From a virus, in IMG/VR virus record IMGVR_UViG_3300023175_001759, positions 1 through 39,032 of that record: 39,032 bases of DNA. One strand, 5' to 3'. Positions 5,953 through 19,581 of the stretch are shown one piece after another. The notes under the pieces are model-generated. The model saw nothing but the letters and a program-made list of their open reading frames with translations, made no database searches and was not told where the DNA came from. Position numbers and translations under genes: made by a program. Position 1 is the stretch's first letter. Each line of letters starts with the position of its first letter.

Positions 5953-6399
5953 TTAGCCTTCAATAGTTCCAACTTCACGGATACTAATTTTCTTTGGTTT
6001 TTGTGCTTCTGGTACTTCACGTACTAGATGAATATTTAACATTCCTAGTTCTAAAGTAGCATTAGCAACTTCTACATGCTCTGCAAGTGTAAACTGTCTG
6101 CGGAAGTTACGCCCGCCAATTCCTTTATGAAGATAGTTTACTTCCTCATCACCTTTTGGAGCAGTACCTTCTACAGTCATTACATTCTTTTCTACTGTAA
6201 TGTCTAAGTTGTCCATACCAAATCCTGCGACTGCAATACTAATCATATATTCGTCTTCGTTGATTTGTGCAATGTTGTAAGGTGGATACCCGTTTGATTT
6301 GCTGTTTGCAAAATCTCGTGTCATTTCATTAAAGATTCTATCAAATCCAATAGTTGCACGATGTAGATGGGGTAAGTCTAGTGTTGTTAATCTTGTCAT
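5953..6399 (-). CDS. small heat-shock protein Hsp20
   Basis: A 148-residue alpha-crystallin chaperone of the IbpA type. The N-terminus contains GFDRIFNEM; the crystallin domain runs from about residue 35 (YPPYNIAQINEDEYMISIAV) through NVMTVEGTAP and GIGGRNFRRQFTL to LELGMLNIHL; and the C-terminal anchor KKISIREV provides the I-x-I motif. It holds unfolding proteins in an oligomer. Small Hsp20s are common in T4-like marine phages and may help virion assembly. Its leader carries both a sigma70-like and a T4-late promoter, so expression through most of infection is likely. SD AAGGAG. Confidence 0.95.
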   Translation of the reverse strand: MTRLTTLDLPHLHRATIGFDRIFNEMTRDFANSKSNGYPPYNIAQINEDEYMISIAVAGFGMDNLDITVEKNVMTVEGTAPKGDEEVNYLHKGIGGRNFRRQFTLAEHVEVANATLELGMLNIHLVREVPEAQKPKKISIREVGTIEG

Positions 6400-6453: not shown

Positions 6454-6484
6454 TATTTATACATTATTTATAAATTTTTGTCAA
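6454..6484 (-). promoter_or_regulatory. overlapping early (sigma70) and late (T4-type) promoter of hsp20
   Basis: The minus strand has TTGACA (6479-6484), a 17-base spacer, then TATAAATA (6454-6461). The first six bases of that box serve as a good -10 (TATAAA) and the whole box is the exact T4 late element. A second exact TATAAATA lies at 6465-6472 within the spacer. Confidence 0.7.
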
Positions 6485-8470: not shown

Positions 8471-8719
8471 TCAATAACCCATTTCTAACTTACGTTTTGC
8501 TTCATTTTTCTTATAACGTCTAATTGCTGCTTCTTTTGATTTACGGCGTTTAGTGCCTTTTGATTCGTAGAATTCACGTTTACGAAGTTCTTGAAGAATA
8601 CCGTCTTCTGCAACTTTCTTCTTAAATCTGCGAAGTGCTTTGTTAACATCGTTATTGTGTACTTCCACATATAATCCGCGGAACTCGTTGTCCCCACGGC
8701 GTCTCATTTTATTAGCCAT
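8471..8719 (-). CDS. rpsU: ribosomal protein bS21
   Basis: An 82-residue basic protein matching bS21: [36 protein letters not shown] and a Lys/Arg-rich tail [20 protein letters not shown]. bS21 sits near the mRNA exit and anti-SD region of the 30S subunit and helps initiation. Phage copies, known from pelagiphages, could replace the host protein and bias ribosomes toward phage mRNA. It is the first gene of a unit with its own sigma70-like promoter, pointing to early expression. SD TGGAG. Confidence 0.95.
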
Positions 8720-16281: not shown

Positions 16282-16633
16282 GCTCACCACCAACACCTCT
16301 GCTGTTGATTACATTGTCTTTTACAAAACGGTTTACAGTTTGTGGACGCTTGTCTGCTTCGTTCATTGTCACTGCTGTGATAAAAACGCCTGCTATCAAA
16401 CTTACGTGGAATATTGCACTAATGCCAAATGCCATATAACTGCCAATCATAATAGCAAATAATCCACTCCAAATAAATGCTAGGCATTGAAATATCATGT
16501 GTGCAACTCTTGGATCTAGTTTACGCAATGGTGAGTTTTCAATAGTCATAAAACTTGACCACATAAGTCCTAGTTCGCTGCGAAGTGAAGTAATAGTTGT
16601 TGCCCAACCAATGGGCTTTGGTTTCTGATTCAT
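16274..16633 (-). CDS. two-span membrane protein of unknown function
   Basis: A 119-residue protein with two or three membrane segments: about residues 46-70 (MIFQCLAFIWSGLFAIMIGS) and 72-92 (FGISAIFHVSLIAGVFITAV). The N-terminal part (SLRSELGLMWSSFMTIENSP) and C-terminus are soluble. SD GGAGAT. First gene below a sigma70-like promoter and upstream of pseudoazurin. A holin-type role cannot be excluded. Confidence 0.65.
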   Translation of the reverse strand: MNQKPKPIGWATTITSLRSELGLMWSSFMTIENSPLRKLDPRVAHMIFQCLAFIWSGLFAIMIGSYMAFGISAIFHVSLIAGVFITAVTMNEADKRPQTVNRFVKDNVINSRGVGGEHE

Positions 16634-16660
16634 ACTAATCTCCGTGTGTCTATGTAATAA

Positions 16661-16689
16661 TATATAGCATGTTTACAGTGTAATGTCAA
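16661..16689 (-). promoter_or_regulatory. sigma70-like promoter for the pseudoazurin unit
   Basis: TTGACA (16684-16689), 17 bases, TATATA (16661-16666) on the minus strand, 28 bases above the start of the 119-residue membrane protein. Perfect -35; the -10 is 4/6 (TATATT two bases on is an alternative). Confidence 0.6.
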
Positions 16690-16718
16690 CCTGACTAGGG
16701 TGTGTTAAATTGTAGCAG

Positions 16719-17069
16719 TTATTCTATATTACGAACTTGCTTTCCACTTTGACACATTTTAACACATAGAGGAGGAGGATTATCACTATTCCATGATTTT
16801 TTACAACAATGATTTTGGTAGTAATCATGATTTACAATATCATATAAATCATGGTAATTTAAGTTGTTCCAATTAGGATCTTGCTCGAAAGCCTTGTTCA
16901 ATGCTTCGTCGGACATTAAAGTGTTATCTTTATCTTTAGGATGTTTATAACTTTCTACCAGGTAATGACAACAAGGCCATAGTTTTCCATCAATATTAAT
17001 TTCCCAATCACGTTGTATATCATCTTCATATTCGTCATAGGTATGGCAATCTATATTATACATATCCAT
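16719..17069 (-). CDS. SPASM-like Cys-rich protein, probable C-terminal half of a radical SAM enzyme
   Basis: A 116-residue protein. INIDGKLWPCCHYL matches the auxiliary iron-sulfur motif of SPASM domains (DG.v.pCC), and further Cys lie in YYQNHCCKKSWNSDNPPPLC followed by KMC. SPASM domains normally form the C-terminal part of radical SAM maturases. Here the frame starts 14 bases inside the upstream radical SAM gene in a shifted frame, at ATGGATATG. Together the two would make about 340 residues, the usual size of a single enzyme. They could be made as two chains, by frameshifting, or be a broken gene. Confidence 0.7.
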   Translation of the reverse strand: MDMYNIDCHTYDEYEDDIQRDWEINIDGKLWPCCHYLVESYKHPKDKDNTLMSDEALNKAFEQDPNWNNLNYHDLYDIVNHDYYQNHCCKKSWNSDNPPPLCVKMCQSGKQVRNIE

Positions 17070-17733
17070 ATTCCTCTAATAATGATGTTGCTTCGTCTAT
17101 TATTAATTCATCACATAACCCTTCGGCAGGATTATCTGTCCTAGTAATTTTGAAAACTAGTTGCTTTTTTTCAAGCTTTAGGTCTTTAGCAATGTTGACT
17201 ACTTCTGGTATTGCTTTGTAGTTCCAATTAAAAAGAATATAATGCCATTCTATCCTGCCGCCGTTTTCATGAAATGCAATCATGTTATCCCATGCTTGTT
17301 GGAACTTTACACCTTTTCTGTATTTCCAATTCATTTCATGATTTATTCCATCAATTCCAAATGCAATAGTTAGATTTCTATTCTTTTTTGCCTGTGCTGC
17401 ATACCATTCCGGTCGGCGTATCCCTCCGTTTGTATTAATTAGAACACCATTTATTAAATTATAGTCAAAAGCAATATCTAAAATTTCGTCTATACGAGGA
17501 TGCATCATAGGATCGCCTAACTCTCCGCATAGTTGTAAATGGCCAAACTGTTGCCATTTATTATAGCCACTGTCTAAAAATTTTTTAAAGTTAGATGGGT
17601 CCATGTGAAATTGATTTTTTGTAATCCAATCAGAAGGAGTACCGTCTTCTTCATTTCTTTGACAGCCTACACAGAAGGCTTGACAATAACTAGAAATAGT
17701 TATATCAAAAGCATTAATTTGTTTTTTTATCAT
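17056..17733 (-). CDS. radical SAM protein (N-terminal catalytic half)
   Basis: A 225-residue protein. SYCQAFCVGCQR gives the C-x3-C-x2-C cluster (Cys17, Cys21, Cys24) that binds the 4Fe-4S and S-adenosylmethionine. LCGELGDPMMHPRIDEIL is the family GGEP-like strand, and LINTNGG and AFGIDGINHEMN continue the partial TIM barrel. The substrate is unknown; relatives act on peptides or in tRNA or cofactor work. The catalytic half ends EEYGYV where the SPASM-like frame begins. Its ATG follows the tmRNA coding piece with no visible SD. Confidence 0.82.
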   Translation of the reverse strand: MIKKQINAFDITISSYCQAFCVGCQRNEEDGTPSDWITKNQFHMDPSNFKKFLDSGYNKWQQFGHLQLCGELGDPMMHPRIDEILDIAFDYNLINGVLINTNGGIRRPEWYAAQAKKNRNLTIAFGIDGINHEMNWKYRKGVKFQQAWDNMIAFHENGGRIEWHYILFNWNYKAIPEVVNIAKDLKLEKKQLVFKITRTDNPAEGLCDELIIDEATSLLEEYGYV

Positions 17734-17734
17734 T

Positions 17735-17962
17735 AAGCATACTATAAGTTATGGCACTTCTGTTGCTAGGCAGTACCCGCCCCCTTAATTATGCTGCTAG
17801 AGCGTAACCAGAAGGTGCAAAGTTATCGTTTGCAGTTGTGTTTTGTAAACTTGCCTACCTGTCGAAACCTGTTTCGCCCCCATCATAAAAACTCTGTGTC
17901 AAAGTGTTTATGGTGGAGGCGCCCGGTACCGCCCCGGGGTCCAAATACGCTTTGTAACGCCT
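17735..17962 (-). ncRNA. ssrA: two-piece (permuted) tmRNA
   Basis: On the minus strand the acceptor piece comes first and ends in encoded CCA at 17911; about 29 bases later the coding piece begins GGGGGCG at 17881. GGGGGCG pairs with CGCCTCC as a 7-bp acceptor stem with a G3-U70 wobble, the alanine identity element. GAAACAGGTTTCGACAGG is the tRNA-like 5' domain. The tag frame (17833 to 17789) reads ANDNFAPSGYALAA then TAA. Downstream CAGAAGTGC can pair with GCACCTTCTG in the tag region. The order acceptor-then-coding is that of alphaproteobacterial permuted ssrA. The outer ends (about 17962 and 17735-17745) are estimates. tmRNA rescues stalled ribosomes and tags the product for Clp proteolysis. 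Confidence 0.93.
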
Positions 17963-17967
17963 ACCTT

Positions 17968-18537
17968 TTATTTATACAGTCTATATTTGATAGTGTCAAC
18001 CACTCTTTTACTTAAAACAATTTCGTAATGGTTTCTATCAATTGTTGTGTATTCTACATCGCCTCTGCAAGTCATTGAATGTCGTGTAACAATACCATCA
18101 TTCTTTCCTGATAACCAAGGAACATCACCTGTTGTAGTAACAATTTGTAACCAAGGAACTTTTATTGAAAGTTTTCTACTGCCTTTTATAAATGCACTGT
18201 GTGGCGTGATATCTCTAAATAATTGATATCCTGGATTTAGTAAACCACCCCAAGTTGCTATCTCGCTGCCATTGAACGGTGTAGCAAGACTTACAACGCC
18301 TTTAATATCAAATTCATTTTGCAAGTAAGTTGCATATACTCCGCCTAAACTATGCGCAATGATACTAAAAGGCCCCTTGTTTTCCCTAATGATTTGTTTC
18401 ATTTCTTGTAGATTTTCTTCAGCAGTTGTTTCTTTATCGTAATTCAGAAAAATAGGATCTTTTACTTTTATTTCTTTTTGAATAAAAGCAAAACTTCTTT
18501 CGCTTGCTGTAGCGCCATGTATGAAAATTGTATTCAT
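17968..18537 (-). CDS. lipase-like alpha/beta hydrolase
   Basis: A 189-residue protein. It opens with the oxyanion strand TIFIHGATASERSFAFI. The nucleophile elbow is FSIIAHSLGGVYATYL with Ser63; NDGIV supplies Asp147 and RNHYEIVLS His170, a full triad. ATPFNGSEIATWGGL is typical of lipase and PGAP1-like members. No signal peptide, so it is cytoplasmic. It could cut host lipids or an ester linkage. Its stop codon abuts the tmRNA late promoter. Confidence 0.8.
   Translation of the reverse strand: MNTIFIHGATASERSFAFIQKEIKVKDPIFLNYDKETTAEENLQEMKQIIRENKGPFSIIAHSLGGVYATYLQNEFDIKGVVSLATPFNGSEIATWGGLLNPGYQLFRDITPHSAFIKGSRKLSIKVPWLQIVTTTGDVPWLSGKNDGIVTRHSMTCRGDVEYTTIDRNHYEIVLSKRVVDTIKYRLYK
17969..17976 (-). 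promoter_or_regulatory. T4-type late promoter for the tmRNA
   Basis: Exact TATAAATA on the minus strand, one base beyond the stop of the hydrolase gene. Transcription would begin close to the expected 5' end of the acceptor piece. Confidence 0.7.
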
Positions 18538-18544
18538 ATATTAT

Positions 18545-19045
18545 TTATAGTGGTTTTTTGCAAACCATTATTATTAATGTACGTCTTTGCTCTATACAAT
18601 CGATAGCATCAAAGTCGTGCCAAGTTTGCTCGCCTCTAAAGAATGCTGTACCACCATTTTTTATATAGGGATTTTGATGAGAAAACTCTGTTTTATTTTT
18701 ATAGATTTTTGTACCTGTGCCTGTGTCTGCTAAACCTAAAACAAAAGTAAAAATCTTTTTAGGATTGTCTGTATGAACTTTATTGTACTGCCAGTCTATA
18801 TCAATATTATCAAATTGTAATTCTAGGTAGTGTCTAGCAAAGTCATACTTTATTATATCAGACAAATCTGCCATAGGTTCTTCTAGCAAATCATGCCACT
18901 TGCCTTCTTTAAAAGGATGCATTGTACGTGCTTCATATCGAGGTAAGTTTTTACTATACTCATTAAATTCATCAAACACATCTTGAGGTAAAAAATTATG
19001 TATGAGATATTGTGTATAAGGGTCTTGTATTTTCTCTACGATCAT
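18545..19045 (-). CDS. 2-oxoglutarate/Fe(II) oxygenase-like protein
   Basis: A 166-residue protein. NKVHTDNPKKIFTFVLGLAD gives H-x-D (His91, Asp93) and a hydrophobic strand; GGTAFFRGEQTWHDFDAIDC gives His143; and QRRTLIIMV supplies an Arg (154) for 2-oxoglutarate. This is the double-stranded beta-helix dioxygenase pattern. It overlaps the next oxygenase-like gene by 4 bases, so the two may act together. Substrate unknown. Confidence 0.7.
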   Translation of the reverse strand: MIVEKIQDPYTQYLIHNFLPQDVFDEFNEYSKNLPRYEARTMHPFKEGKWHDLLEEPMADLSDIIKYDFARHYLELQFDNIDIDWQYNKVHTDNPKKIFTFVLGLADTGTGTKIYKNKTEFSHQNPYIKNGGTAFFRGEQTWHDFDAIDCIEQRRTLIIMVCKKPL

Positions 19046-19581
19046 ACAAGCACACTTTCATCTTGCCAATTATCATTTACATAATTTACAATTATGCTGA
19101 CTCTATCATCTTCCAGAGGATCTAATTTATGCGGTTCATTACCAGTGTTTACAAAAAACCAACCACTGCCTCTTGTAGCTCTTGTTTTTATATTGTTAAA
19201 AGTTGTACTGGTTTCTTGATAATTTAAATATAATTGCAATGTAAAAGTTTTAGCATCGTCGTCGCAGTGATCTTCTAACCAACTGCCTTTAAGATCTTTA
19301 CAAAGTTCAATTCTCAATCTATCAGTTGTATAATCTTTACCTACAGTTTCGCCAAACATTTTTCTTGTTTCGTATGAATCAAAAAACTCTATTACATCCC
19401 AAAAACAAGGATGTTCATAATGATGCATCCAATGCCTTACATTTTTATCTGTGCGTTTACCATTCAACGATCCCCAGGAAAGCACTTCAGATTCGTTGAT
19501 AATGCATCTTATAAGATCATCACTTATAAGGTTTTTAAACTGCCAAATTGTGTAACCTACATTAACTGTGTTTAATATCAA
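19042..19581 (-). CDS. 2-oxoglutarate/Fe(II) oxygenase-like protein
   Basis: A 179-residue protein. WLEDHCDDDAKTFTLQLYLN contains H-x-D (His105, Asp107); SGWFFVNTGNEPHKLDPLED has His151; and DDRVSIIVNYV contributes Arg160. The same fold is expected as in the previous gene but the sequences are distant. It overlaps the next gene upstream by 20 bases. Confidence 0.7.
   Translation of the reverse strand: MILNTVNVGYTIWQFKNLISDDLIRCIINESEVLSWGSLNGKRTDKNVRHWMHHYEHPCFWDVIEFFDSYETRKMFGETVGKDYTTDRLRIELCKDLKGSWLEDHCDDDAKTFTLQLYLNYQETSTTFNNIKTRATRGSGWFFVNTGNEPHKLDPLEDDRVSIIVNYVNDNWQDESVLV

What the first reader, a model, noticed from the sequence alone, without database searches (positions are those of the whole stretch)
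17735..17976. Permuted two-piece tmRNA driven by a T4-type late promoter
The acceptor piece, intervening loop and coding piece are all clear, with tag ANDNFAPSGYALAA. An exact TATAAATA sits just upstream, so phage sigma would make it late in infection. A phage-made tmRNA could free ribosomes on degraded host mRNA and feed tagged products to Clp.
Basis: partly seen in the sequence, partly recalled or inferred. Interest (0 to 1): 0.85.

Follow-up and report, generated by a model that had tools for sequence, protein, structure and literature searches.

The report
Phage tmRNA with a two-way promoter
A large bacteriophage carries its own two-piece ribosome-rescue RNA, and many related phage genes start from a promoter that looks readable both by the host's enzyme early in infection and by a phage factor late, suggesting the RNA is wanted throughout infection.

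Summary
The tmRNA is real: minus strand 17747-18003, Rfam alpha_tmRNA, 84.6 bits. Stems covary across 127 tmRNAs, with a G3-U70 wobble. Phage two-piece tmRNAs are known (Melnitz, PMC9004378).

"Late promoter" is half the story. TATAAATA has TTGACA, a sigma-70 -35 box, exactly 17 nt upstream. Of 120 viral loci with this T arm, 68 have the fused form, 9 TATAAATA alone, 23 a sigma-70-like site, 20 neither. Away from tmRNAs in those loci, 4 of 154 TATAAATA sites have such a -35. Against late use: no gp55 was found in this phage's fragments, and two gp55-bearing relatives show little TATAAATA upstream of other genes. Host ssrA promoters could not be checked. Overlapping early/late promoters were proposed for RB49 (PMC2984593).

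The window's tmRNA belongs to a compact subtype without PK1, the pseudoknot E. coli tagging needs; close relatives carry a PK1-like insert at the same locus (by eye). The same phage's longer contig encodes ClpP. SmpB was found in 0 of 23 records.

A new variant of a known kind; expression and function are untested.

The parts
17994..17999 (-). -35 hexamer TTGACA, 17 nt upstream of TATAAATA
   Evidence: read; recurring spacing
17969..17976 (-). TATAAATA: T4-type late octamer and, as TATAAA, a sigma-70 -10 element (5 of 6); overlaps the last codons and stop (TAT AAA TAA) of the upstream hydrolase gene
17959..17964 (-). GUAGGC, 5' strand of the proposed P2 at the start of the acceptor piece; predicted transcription start falls here (inference from T4 spacing -13 to -6, PMC1524935 passage)
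   Evidence: pairs 6 of 6, two of them G-U, with GUUUAC of the coding piece
17911..17964 (-). acceptor piece: P2 5' strand, T arm, acceptor 3' strand CGCCUCC, ACCA end
17882..17910 (-). intervening loop, 29 nt, expected to be removed
17747..17881 (-). coding piece: acceptor 5' strand GGGGGCG (17881-17875) with G3-U70 wobble, tag reading frame, 3' hairpin; no PK1
   Evidence: the 3' limit is the end of the Rfam match
17789..17833 (-). tag reading frame, ANDNFAPSGYALAA and stop
17753..17777 (-). 3' hairpin GGUACU/AGUGCC; its loop (GCCU) can pair with GGGC upstream as a pseudoknot
   Evidence: compensatory types in relatives
17968..18537 (-). alpha/beta-hydrolase-like ORF (UPF0227, 23.6 bits, cut-off 21) whose 3' end holds the promoter
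17056..17733 (-). radical SAM ORF directly downstream; no terminator-like site listed between
6454..6484 (-). second TTGACA-17-TATAAATA in the window, before the Hsp20 gene (5953-6399)

Best explanation
This is a functional-looking permuted (two-piece) tmRNA gene of a large T4-superfamily phage, probably infecting an alphaproteobacterium. Its transcript starts at one place from a fused promoter: host RNA polymerase with sigma-70 reads TTGACA-17-TATAAA early, and later polymerase with a gp55-type phage sigma reads the same TATAAATA, as proposed for the overlapping promoters of RB49. Host tRNA-processing enzymes remove the loop; the two pieces stay paired by the acceptor stem and P2. Host AlaRS charges it (G3-U70), host SmpB delivers it to ribosomes stalled on broken mRNA, and the nascent chain gets a tag ending in ALAA, which sends it to Clp proteases, possibly including the phage's own ClpP. 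The likely gain is that ribosomes keep being freed throughout infection while host and phage mRNA is being cut. Shown: sequence, stem covariation, recurring promoter elements, a ClpP gene on the same phage. Inferred: host, use of both sigmas, processing, charging, tagging, benefit.
For: tmRNA identity. Across 127 distinct tmRNAs the acceptor stem pairs 7 of 7 in 126, in 14 sequence types; position 3 is G opposite U in 127 of 127; the T stem pairs 5 of 5 in 127 of 127 with 19 types. Tags: 103 of 127 recovered by a script that required an AA ending; independently, ARAGORN gives tags ending LAA or MAA in the 15 of 28 loci where it found a tmRNA (7 of the 28 held only weak family hits). Promoter: of 72 TATAAATA sites just upstream of tmRNAs 54 have TTGACA at exactly 17 nt and 5 match 5 of 6; elsewhere in the same loci 4 of 154 do. 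Among TTGACA-17-TATAA sites the -10 is TATAAATA in 53 of 55 at tmRNAs and in 3 of 43 elsewhere, where TATAAT prevails (36). In 70 fused sequences flanks and spacer are barely alike (mean identity 0.32 and 0.37; 45 flank clusters). In Melnitz 23 of 25 TATAAATA sites lack a -35 of 5 or more matches, many of them before structural genes, TTGACA-type sites precede several replication genes, and the tmRNA has both elements. The four gp55-bearing records with tmRNA (Melnitz, G047, G051, G053) all have the fused form, two with 5 of 6 at -35. In the window's longer contig G001 TATAAATA is the most frequent of 56 same-composition octamers upstream of ORFs: 9, others mean 1.6, max 4. ClpP. ClpA-like ATPase with IGF at the place of the E. 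coli IGL in relative G016 (by eye).
Against: 52 of 120 loci lack the fused form (23 sigma-70-like by a lenient score, 9 TATAAATA only, 20 neither), and phages of those classes also have TATAAATA upstream of other genes (20 sense against 4 antisense in the sigma-70 class); in the fused class itself the excess is modest, 24 against 12 over 857 ORFs. In the late regions fetched from gp55-bearing G051 and G053, TATAAATA was found upstream of ORFs 0 times (L229), 0 times (L232) and 2 times (L230, also 2 antisense), so the octamer may not be their late promoter although their tmRNAs have it; in G016 it is rank 8 of 56. The loci are related, so the statistics overstate independence. The host's own ssrA promoter could not be examined; the -10 could have come with the gene. 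No gp55 or T4 portal was found in G001, G016, G025 or G028, all fragments. The tRNA control is weak: 0 of 50 tRNA starts have the fused form, but none has a recognisable sigma-70 site either. SmpB: 0 of 23 records. ClpP in 7 of 23 and the Clp ATPase family in 4 of 23; only Phosso showed both. Free co-folding of the two pieces recovered the acceptor stem but not P2 or the T arm and lay about 1.4 sd below shuffles. Expression is untested.
Confidence: 0.58

Rival explanations
1. Early only: an ordinary sigma-70 promoter, perhaps captured with a host ssrA gene, in which TATAAATA is just a -10 variant with no late use. This is close to the published reading for Melnitz.
For: TTGACA at 17 nt is a full -35 box; Melnitz authors call their promoter early; 23 of 120 loci have only a sigma-70-like site; in the fetched parts of G051 and G053, which encode gp55, TATAAATA is rare upstream of other genes.
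Against: Other TTGACA-17-TATAA promoters in the same loci read TATAAT, not TATAAATA (36 to 3); TATAAATA lacks the last T of TATAAT; 9 loci keep TATAAATA without a -35. At the same hydrolase end in L011 and L014, where no tmRNA follows, TTGACA is followed at 17 nt by TATAAT (by eye).
Confidence: 0.25
2. Late only: gp55 polymerase makes the tmRNA late, and TTGACA is chance or protein coding.
For: Exact octamer; structural genes in Melnitz carry it; the -35 lies in the hydrolase coding end.
Against: TTGACA at exactly 17 nt recurs at 54 of 72 sites with unlike flanks, and a hydrolase homologue was detected near the tmRNA in only 4 of 121 loci; T4 late promoters have no -35 (PMC2988020 passage).
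Confidence: 0.08
3. The RNA is not a working tmRNA but a decoy or relic that interferes with the host's own, as reported for the tagless form of phage DS6A (PMC11915505 passage).
For: The window form lacks PK1, which E. coli tagging needs (PMC3968760 passage); ARAGORN finds no gene in the window.
Against: Acceptor stem and T arm covary over the whole set, and the compact group keeps its stems and the tag frame; drift would be expected to break these.
Confidence: 0.08

Closest known systems
Methylophilales phage Melnitz ssrA (PMC9004378; MZ577097.1)
   Same: Phage permuted tmRNA, placed by its authors with alphaproteobacterial ones, in a T4-like phage; the same TTGACA-17-TATAAATA upstream
   Different: Longer stretch between TCGAC and tag; authors describe an early promoter and a glutamine riboswitch, which Rfam did not find at E up to 10 around the window gene; other gene neighbours (late coactivator, PhoH)
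Alphaproteobacterial two-piece tmRNA (Rfam RF01849)
   Same: Order of pieces, acceptor stem, GGCGGUA T loop, tag start, 3' hairpin
   Different: PK1 segment deleted in the window's compact subtype
Sinorhizobium jumbo phages Phosso and AP-J-162
   Same: Large phages with tmRNA and Clp genes (AP-J-162 also Hsp20: PMC11242549 passages; Phosso); the G016 polymerase is nearest Phosso among phage records
   Different: The Phosso tmRNA region has other annotated neighbours and its upstream lacks the exact fused octamer (by eye)
Overlapping early/late promoters of phage RB49 (PMC2984593 passage)
   Same: Early and late promoters overlapping at one gene
   Different: There proposed for middle-mode genes; here at a small RNA gene

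Membership tests
permuted (two-piece) tmRNA | tRNA-like half encoded upstream of the tag half, ending in CCA, with intervening loop | tested here: met
permuted (two-piece) tmRNA | score above curated cut-off of the family model | tested here: met
   84.6 vs 50 and 81.7 vs 47 bits
permuted (two-piece) tmRNA | acceptor stem between the pieces with G3-U70 (alanine identity, recalled) | tested here: met
   window 7 of 7; 126 of 127 fully paired and 127 of 127 G3-U70 over the set
permuted (two-piece) tmRNA | tag frame ending in a Clp-type degron (xAA) | tested here: met
   ANDNFAPSGYALAA; relatives
alpha-type tmRNA | PK1-like element between TCGAC and tag | tested here: not met
   27-nt gap; segment deleted against the model. 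It is filed as a variant of the permuted form, not as a standard alpha-type molecule
permuted (two-piece) tmRNA | processed into two mature RNAs | not testable with these tools
   needs RNA from infected cells
T4-type late promoter | TATAAATA at -13 to -6 | tested here: inconclusive
   octamer present; the start site, and so the position, is only predicted
T4-type late promoter | no -35 element | tested here: not met
   TTGACA at 17 nt; so not a pure late promoter
T4-type late promoter | phage encodes gp55 | tested here: inconclusive
   not found in G001, G016, G025, G028 fragments; found in Melnitz, G047, G051, G053 (4 of 48 records)
sigma-70 promoter | TTGACA, 16-18 nt, TATAAT | tested here: inconclusive
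   -35 perfect, spacing 17, -10 is TATAAA (5 of 6, last T missing)

The most novel reading that the evidence does not exclude
Large T4-superfamily phages run their own trans-translation arm through the whole infection: a tmRNA from one start site used by host sigma-70 and then by the phage sigma, in some trimmed to a PK1-less core that still tags proteins, with phage ClpP or a phage Clp ATPase taking the tagged products, while only SmpB is borrowed.
Probability: 0.28. Interest if true: 0.72.

Novelty: new variant of a known kind. Interest (0 to 1): 0.52.

Why it matters
Why phages carry tmRNA is open. The compact form is a natural test of whether PK1 is needed: closely related phages carry the tmRNA with and without it at the same place. 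A ClpP gene on the same phage suggests a link between tagging and phage-run proteolysis.

Tried and rejected
Late-only promoter: rejected as sufficient because of the recurring TTGACA at 17 nt. Protein coding as the reason for TTGACA: the 9 distinct hydrolase ends that abut a tmRNA all read GTT GAC A and TAT AAA TA(A/G); of 16 distinct ends without one none reads TAT AAA TAR, but 3 hold GTTGACA (L018, L011, L014; in the last two out of frame and followed at 17 nt by TATAAT); GAC is only 33-35% of Asp codons in G001 and G016; 1 end cut by its contig was not classed. The promoter also stands where no hydrolase was detected. A general stable-RNA promoter: 0 of 50 tRNA starts, a weak control since no sigma-70 site was seen there either. 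Fused form limited to T4-superfamily phages and sigma-70 form to others: not supported; 118 of 120 loci over all classes have hits to the reference records. A glutamine riboswitch as in Melnitz: none at E up to 10 in 16600-19100. Bacterial donor by tag pattern: one match in the genome contigs, L221, whose neighbours (Hsp20-like, clamp-loader-like and clamp-like ORFs, judged by eye from translations, not searched) look phage-like; the pattern was strict. Co-folding of the two pieces: uninformative (the forced pairs were evidently not applied). Loss of P2 in the compact form: considered, then set aside.

Full report
What is there. The window is a 39-kb linear virus fragment. On the minus strand Rfam finds an alphaproteobacterial permuted tmRNA at 18003-17747 (84.6 bits against a cut-off of 50) and the general permuted model at 17961-17789 (81.7 against 47). 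The acceptor piece comes first, then a 29-nt loop, then the coding piece with tag ANDNFAPSGYALAA. ARAGORN finds nothing.

Is it a working design? Among 127 distinct tmRNAs the acceptor stem is fully paired in 126, in 14 sequence types; the exception, L065, lies near a contig end and may be a chimera or a recombinant. G3-U70, an alanine identity element (recalled), is kept in 127 of 127; U70 was largely fixed by the search pattern, while position 3 could have been A. T stems pair 5 of 5 in 127 of 127, in 19 types. A script recovered 103 tags ending in xAA, but it required an AA ending and sometimes took an earlier in-frame start (for the window too). ARAGORN independently reported tags ending LAA or MAA where it found a tmRNA, 15 of the 28 loci given, 7 of which held only weak family hits. 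This argues for selection on a working molecule.

The compact subtype. In 21 of 127 the gap from TCGAC to the tag is under 40 nt (window 27); in 84 of the other 106 it is 60-69. A PK1-like core motif was seen in 3 of the 21 and 84 of the 106, and the alpha model's PK1 stretch is deleted in the window. 17 of the 21 have, at the expected places, GUARRY in the acceptor piece (or GUGGAC) and GUYUAC in the coding piece, a proposed P2. The expressions used force most of those pairs; the free position behaves as a pair should (A with U in 5, G with C in 3, G with U in 9). A review states that E. coli tagging needs PK1, although a hairpin can replace it (PMC3968760, passages). A helix between GGGY and RCCU around the 3' hairpin shows compensatory types (GGGU/ACCU 33, GGGC/GCCU 13, GAGC/GCUU 2, GAGU/ACUU 1, others 3, no partner 12, of 64 examined; the search was permissive). 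L061 and L063, from phages whose hydrolase is 96% and radical SAM protein 91% identical to the window's, have a similar tag and 3' end but a PK1-like insert (by eye). ARAGORN found 3 of 16 compact and 71 of 97 other tmRNAs; 14 of the 127 were left out of that count for want of downstream sequence.

The promoter. TATAAATA lies at 17976-17969 and TTGACA at 17999-17994, 17 nt apart. The 120 loci give 111 distinct upstreams; 73 have TATAAATA within 110 nt: 54 of these with TTGACA at 17, 5 with 5 of 6 at 17, 4 with TTGACA at 18, 1 at 16, 9 with none; 38 lack the octamer. With a tighter position window, and counting all 120 loci, the classes are fused 68, TATAAATA only 9, sigma-70-like 23 (score of 9 of 12 at 17 nt, lenient), neither 20. 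Internal controls: 59 of 72 tmRNA-linked octamers have a -35 of 5 or 6 matches at 17, against 4 of 154 elsewhere in the same loci; one of those 4 (L198) precedes another tmRNA-like sequence by eye. TTGACA-17-TATAA sites read TATAAATA in 53 of 55 at tmRNAs and 3 of 43 elsewhere. Fisher tests give 2e-36 and 2e-21 but treat related loci as independent. In 70 sequences chosen for having both elements, flanks fall into 45 groups and spacer identity averages 0.37, so the elements look held while their surroundings drift. Melnitz shows the contrast in one genome: 25 octamers, 23 without a -35 of 5 or more matches, many before structural genes but some before others; TTGACA-type sites before several replication genes (the loose pattern also hits inside structural genes); both elements at the tmRNA. 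Its authors called sigma-70 hits early and searched TATAAAT for late promoters separately, and report the tmRNA downstream of an early promoter. Overlapping early and late promoters were proposed for RB49, and both types before some S-PM2 genes (PMC2984593, passages), so the device is known; I did not find it reported for tmRNA in searches, of which I saw listings and passages of the papers named here; the library covers open-access papers only.

Against the late half. TATAAATA is top of 56 same-composition octamers upstream of ORFs in G001 (9), Melnitz (18), G028 (12) and one fetched part of G047 (8), but eighth in G016 (6) and rare in the fetched parts of G051 (0) and G053 (0 and 2), although both encode gp55 and have the octamer at their tmRNA. 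In the 68 fused loci the excess upstream of other ORFs is 24 sense to 12 antisense.

In the window the promoter sits in the end of the hydrolase gene, whose last codons TAT AAA TAA hold the octamer. The T4 late octamer lies at -13 to -6 (PMC1524935 passage), which places the start at the first bases of P2: one start could serve both sigmas without 5' trimming (inference).

The phage. The contig G001 (79.6 kb) contains the window at 99.94% identity. Relative G016 (172 kb) has a polymerase nearest Sinorhizobium phage Phosso and Agrobacterium phage Atu_ph07, so the window is probably part of a jumbo T4-superfamily phage (inference). gp55 and the T4 portal were each found in 4 of 48 records, not in G001, G016, G025 or G028; a local iterative search gave the same for G001, G016 and G028. 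G028 does carry gp33.

Clp. G001 encodes ClpP (256 bits); its best PDB match is a ClpP chain and the Ser, His and Asp of the triad (positions recalled) are in place. ClpP occurs in 7 of 23 records searched, a Clp ATPase family (phrog_4871) in 4 of 23, both in Phosso only; SmpB in none of 23. The G016 ATPase is nearest ClpA in the PDB. Most records are fragments. A jumbo relative with tmRNA, six Clp ORFs and Hsp20 has been described (PMC11242549, passages), and huge phages with tmRNA and SmpB are reported (PMC7162821, passages).

Judgement. The tmRNA is near certain as a gene of this kind (about 0.97). A promoter meant for both early and late use is more likely than not (about 0.6-0.65). Whether the RNA tags proteins and feeds phage ClpP is plausible but untested.

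Noticed in passing
window 6454-6484 minus, before Hsp20 (5953-6399): The Hsp20 gene has the same fused TTGACA-17-TATAAATA, with a second TATAAATA 11 nt upstream.
   Followed up: partly
L098 10260-10446 (G001 about 70260-70446): A third exact fused promoter precedes a short stretch with a possible 19-aa ORF and, by eye, a terminator-like hairpin, before a tRNA group; nature unknown.
   Followed up: partly
L007/L008 (L067/L065): Same acceptor piece and nearly the same loop but different coding pieces; in L065 the acceptor stem no longer pairs fully. Recombination or an assembly chimera near a contig end.
   Followed up: partly
L061, L063, L062 (L016) versus window: The T loop is canonical TTCRANT in some phages and GGCRGTA in others at the same locus, suggesting tmRNA pieces are swapped.
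   Followed up: no
L011, L014 at the hydrolase end: No tmRNA follows; there TTGACA is followed at 17 nt by TATAAT, an ordinary early-type promoter for the next gene.
   Followed up: no
window 8471-8719 and 85-819: bS21 ribosomal protein homologue (tblastn with the Melnitz protein) and a curlin-repeat protein; TATAAATA stands just before the curlin ORF.
   Followed up: no
L221 (NHBR02000136.1, labelled Muricauda MAG): Contig filed under a bacterium carries a permuted tmRNA next to an Hsp20-like ORF and looks like phage DNA by eye.
   Followed up: partly
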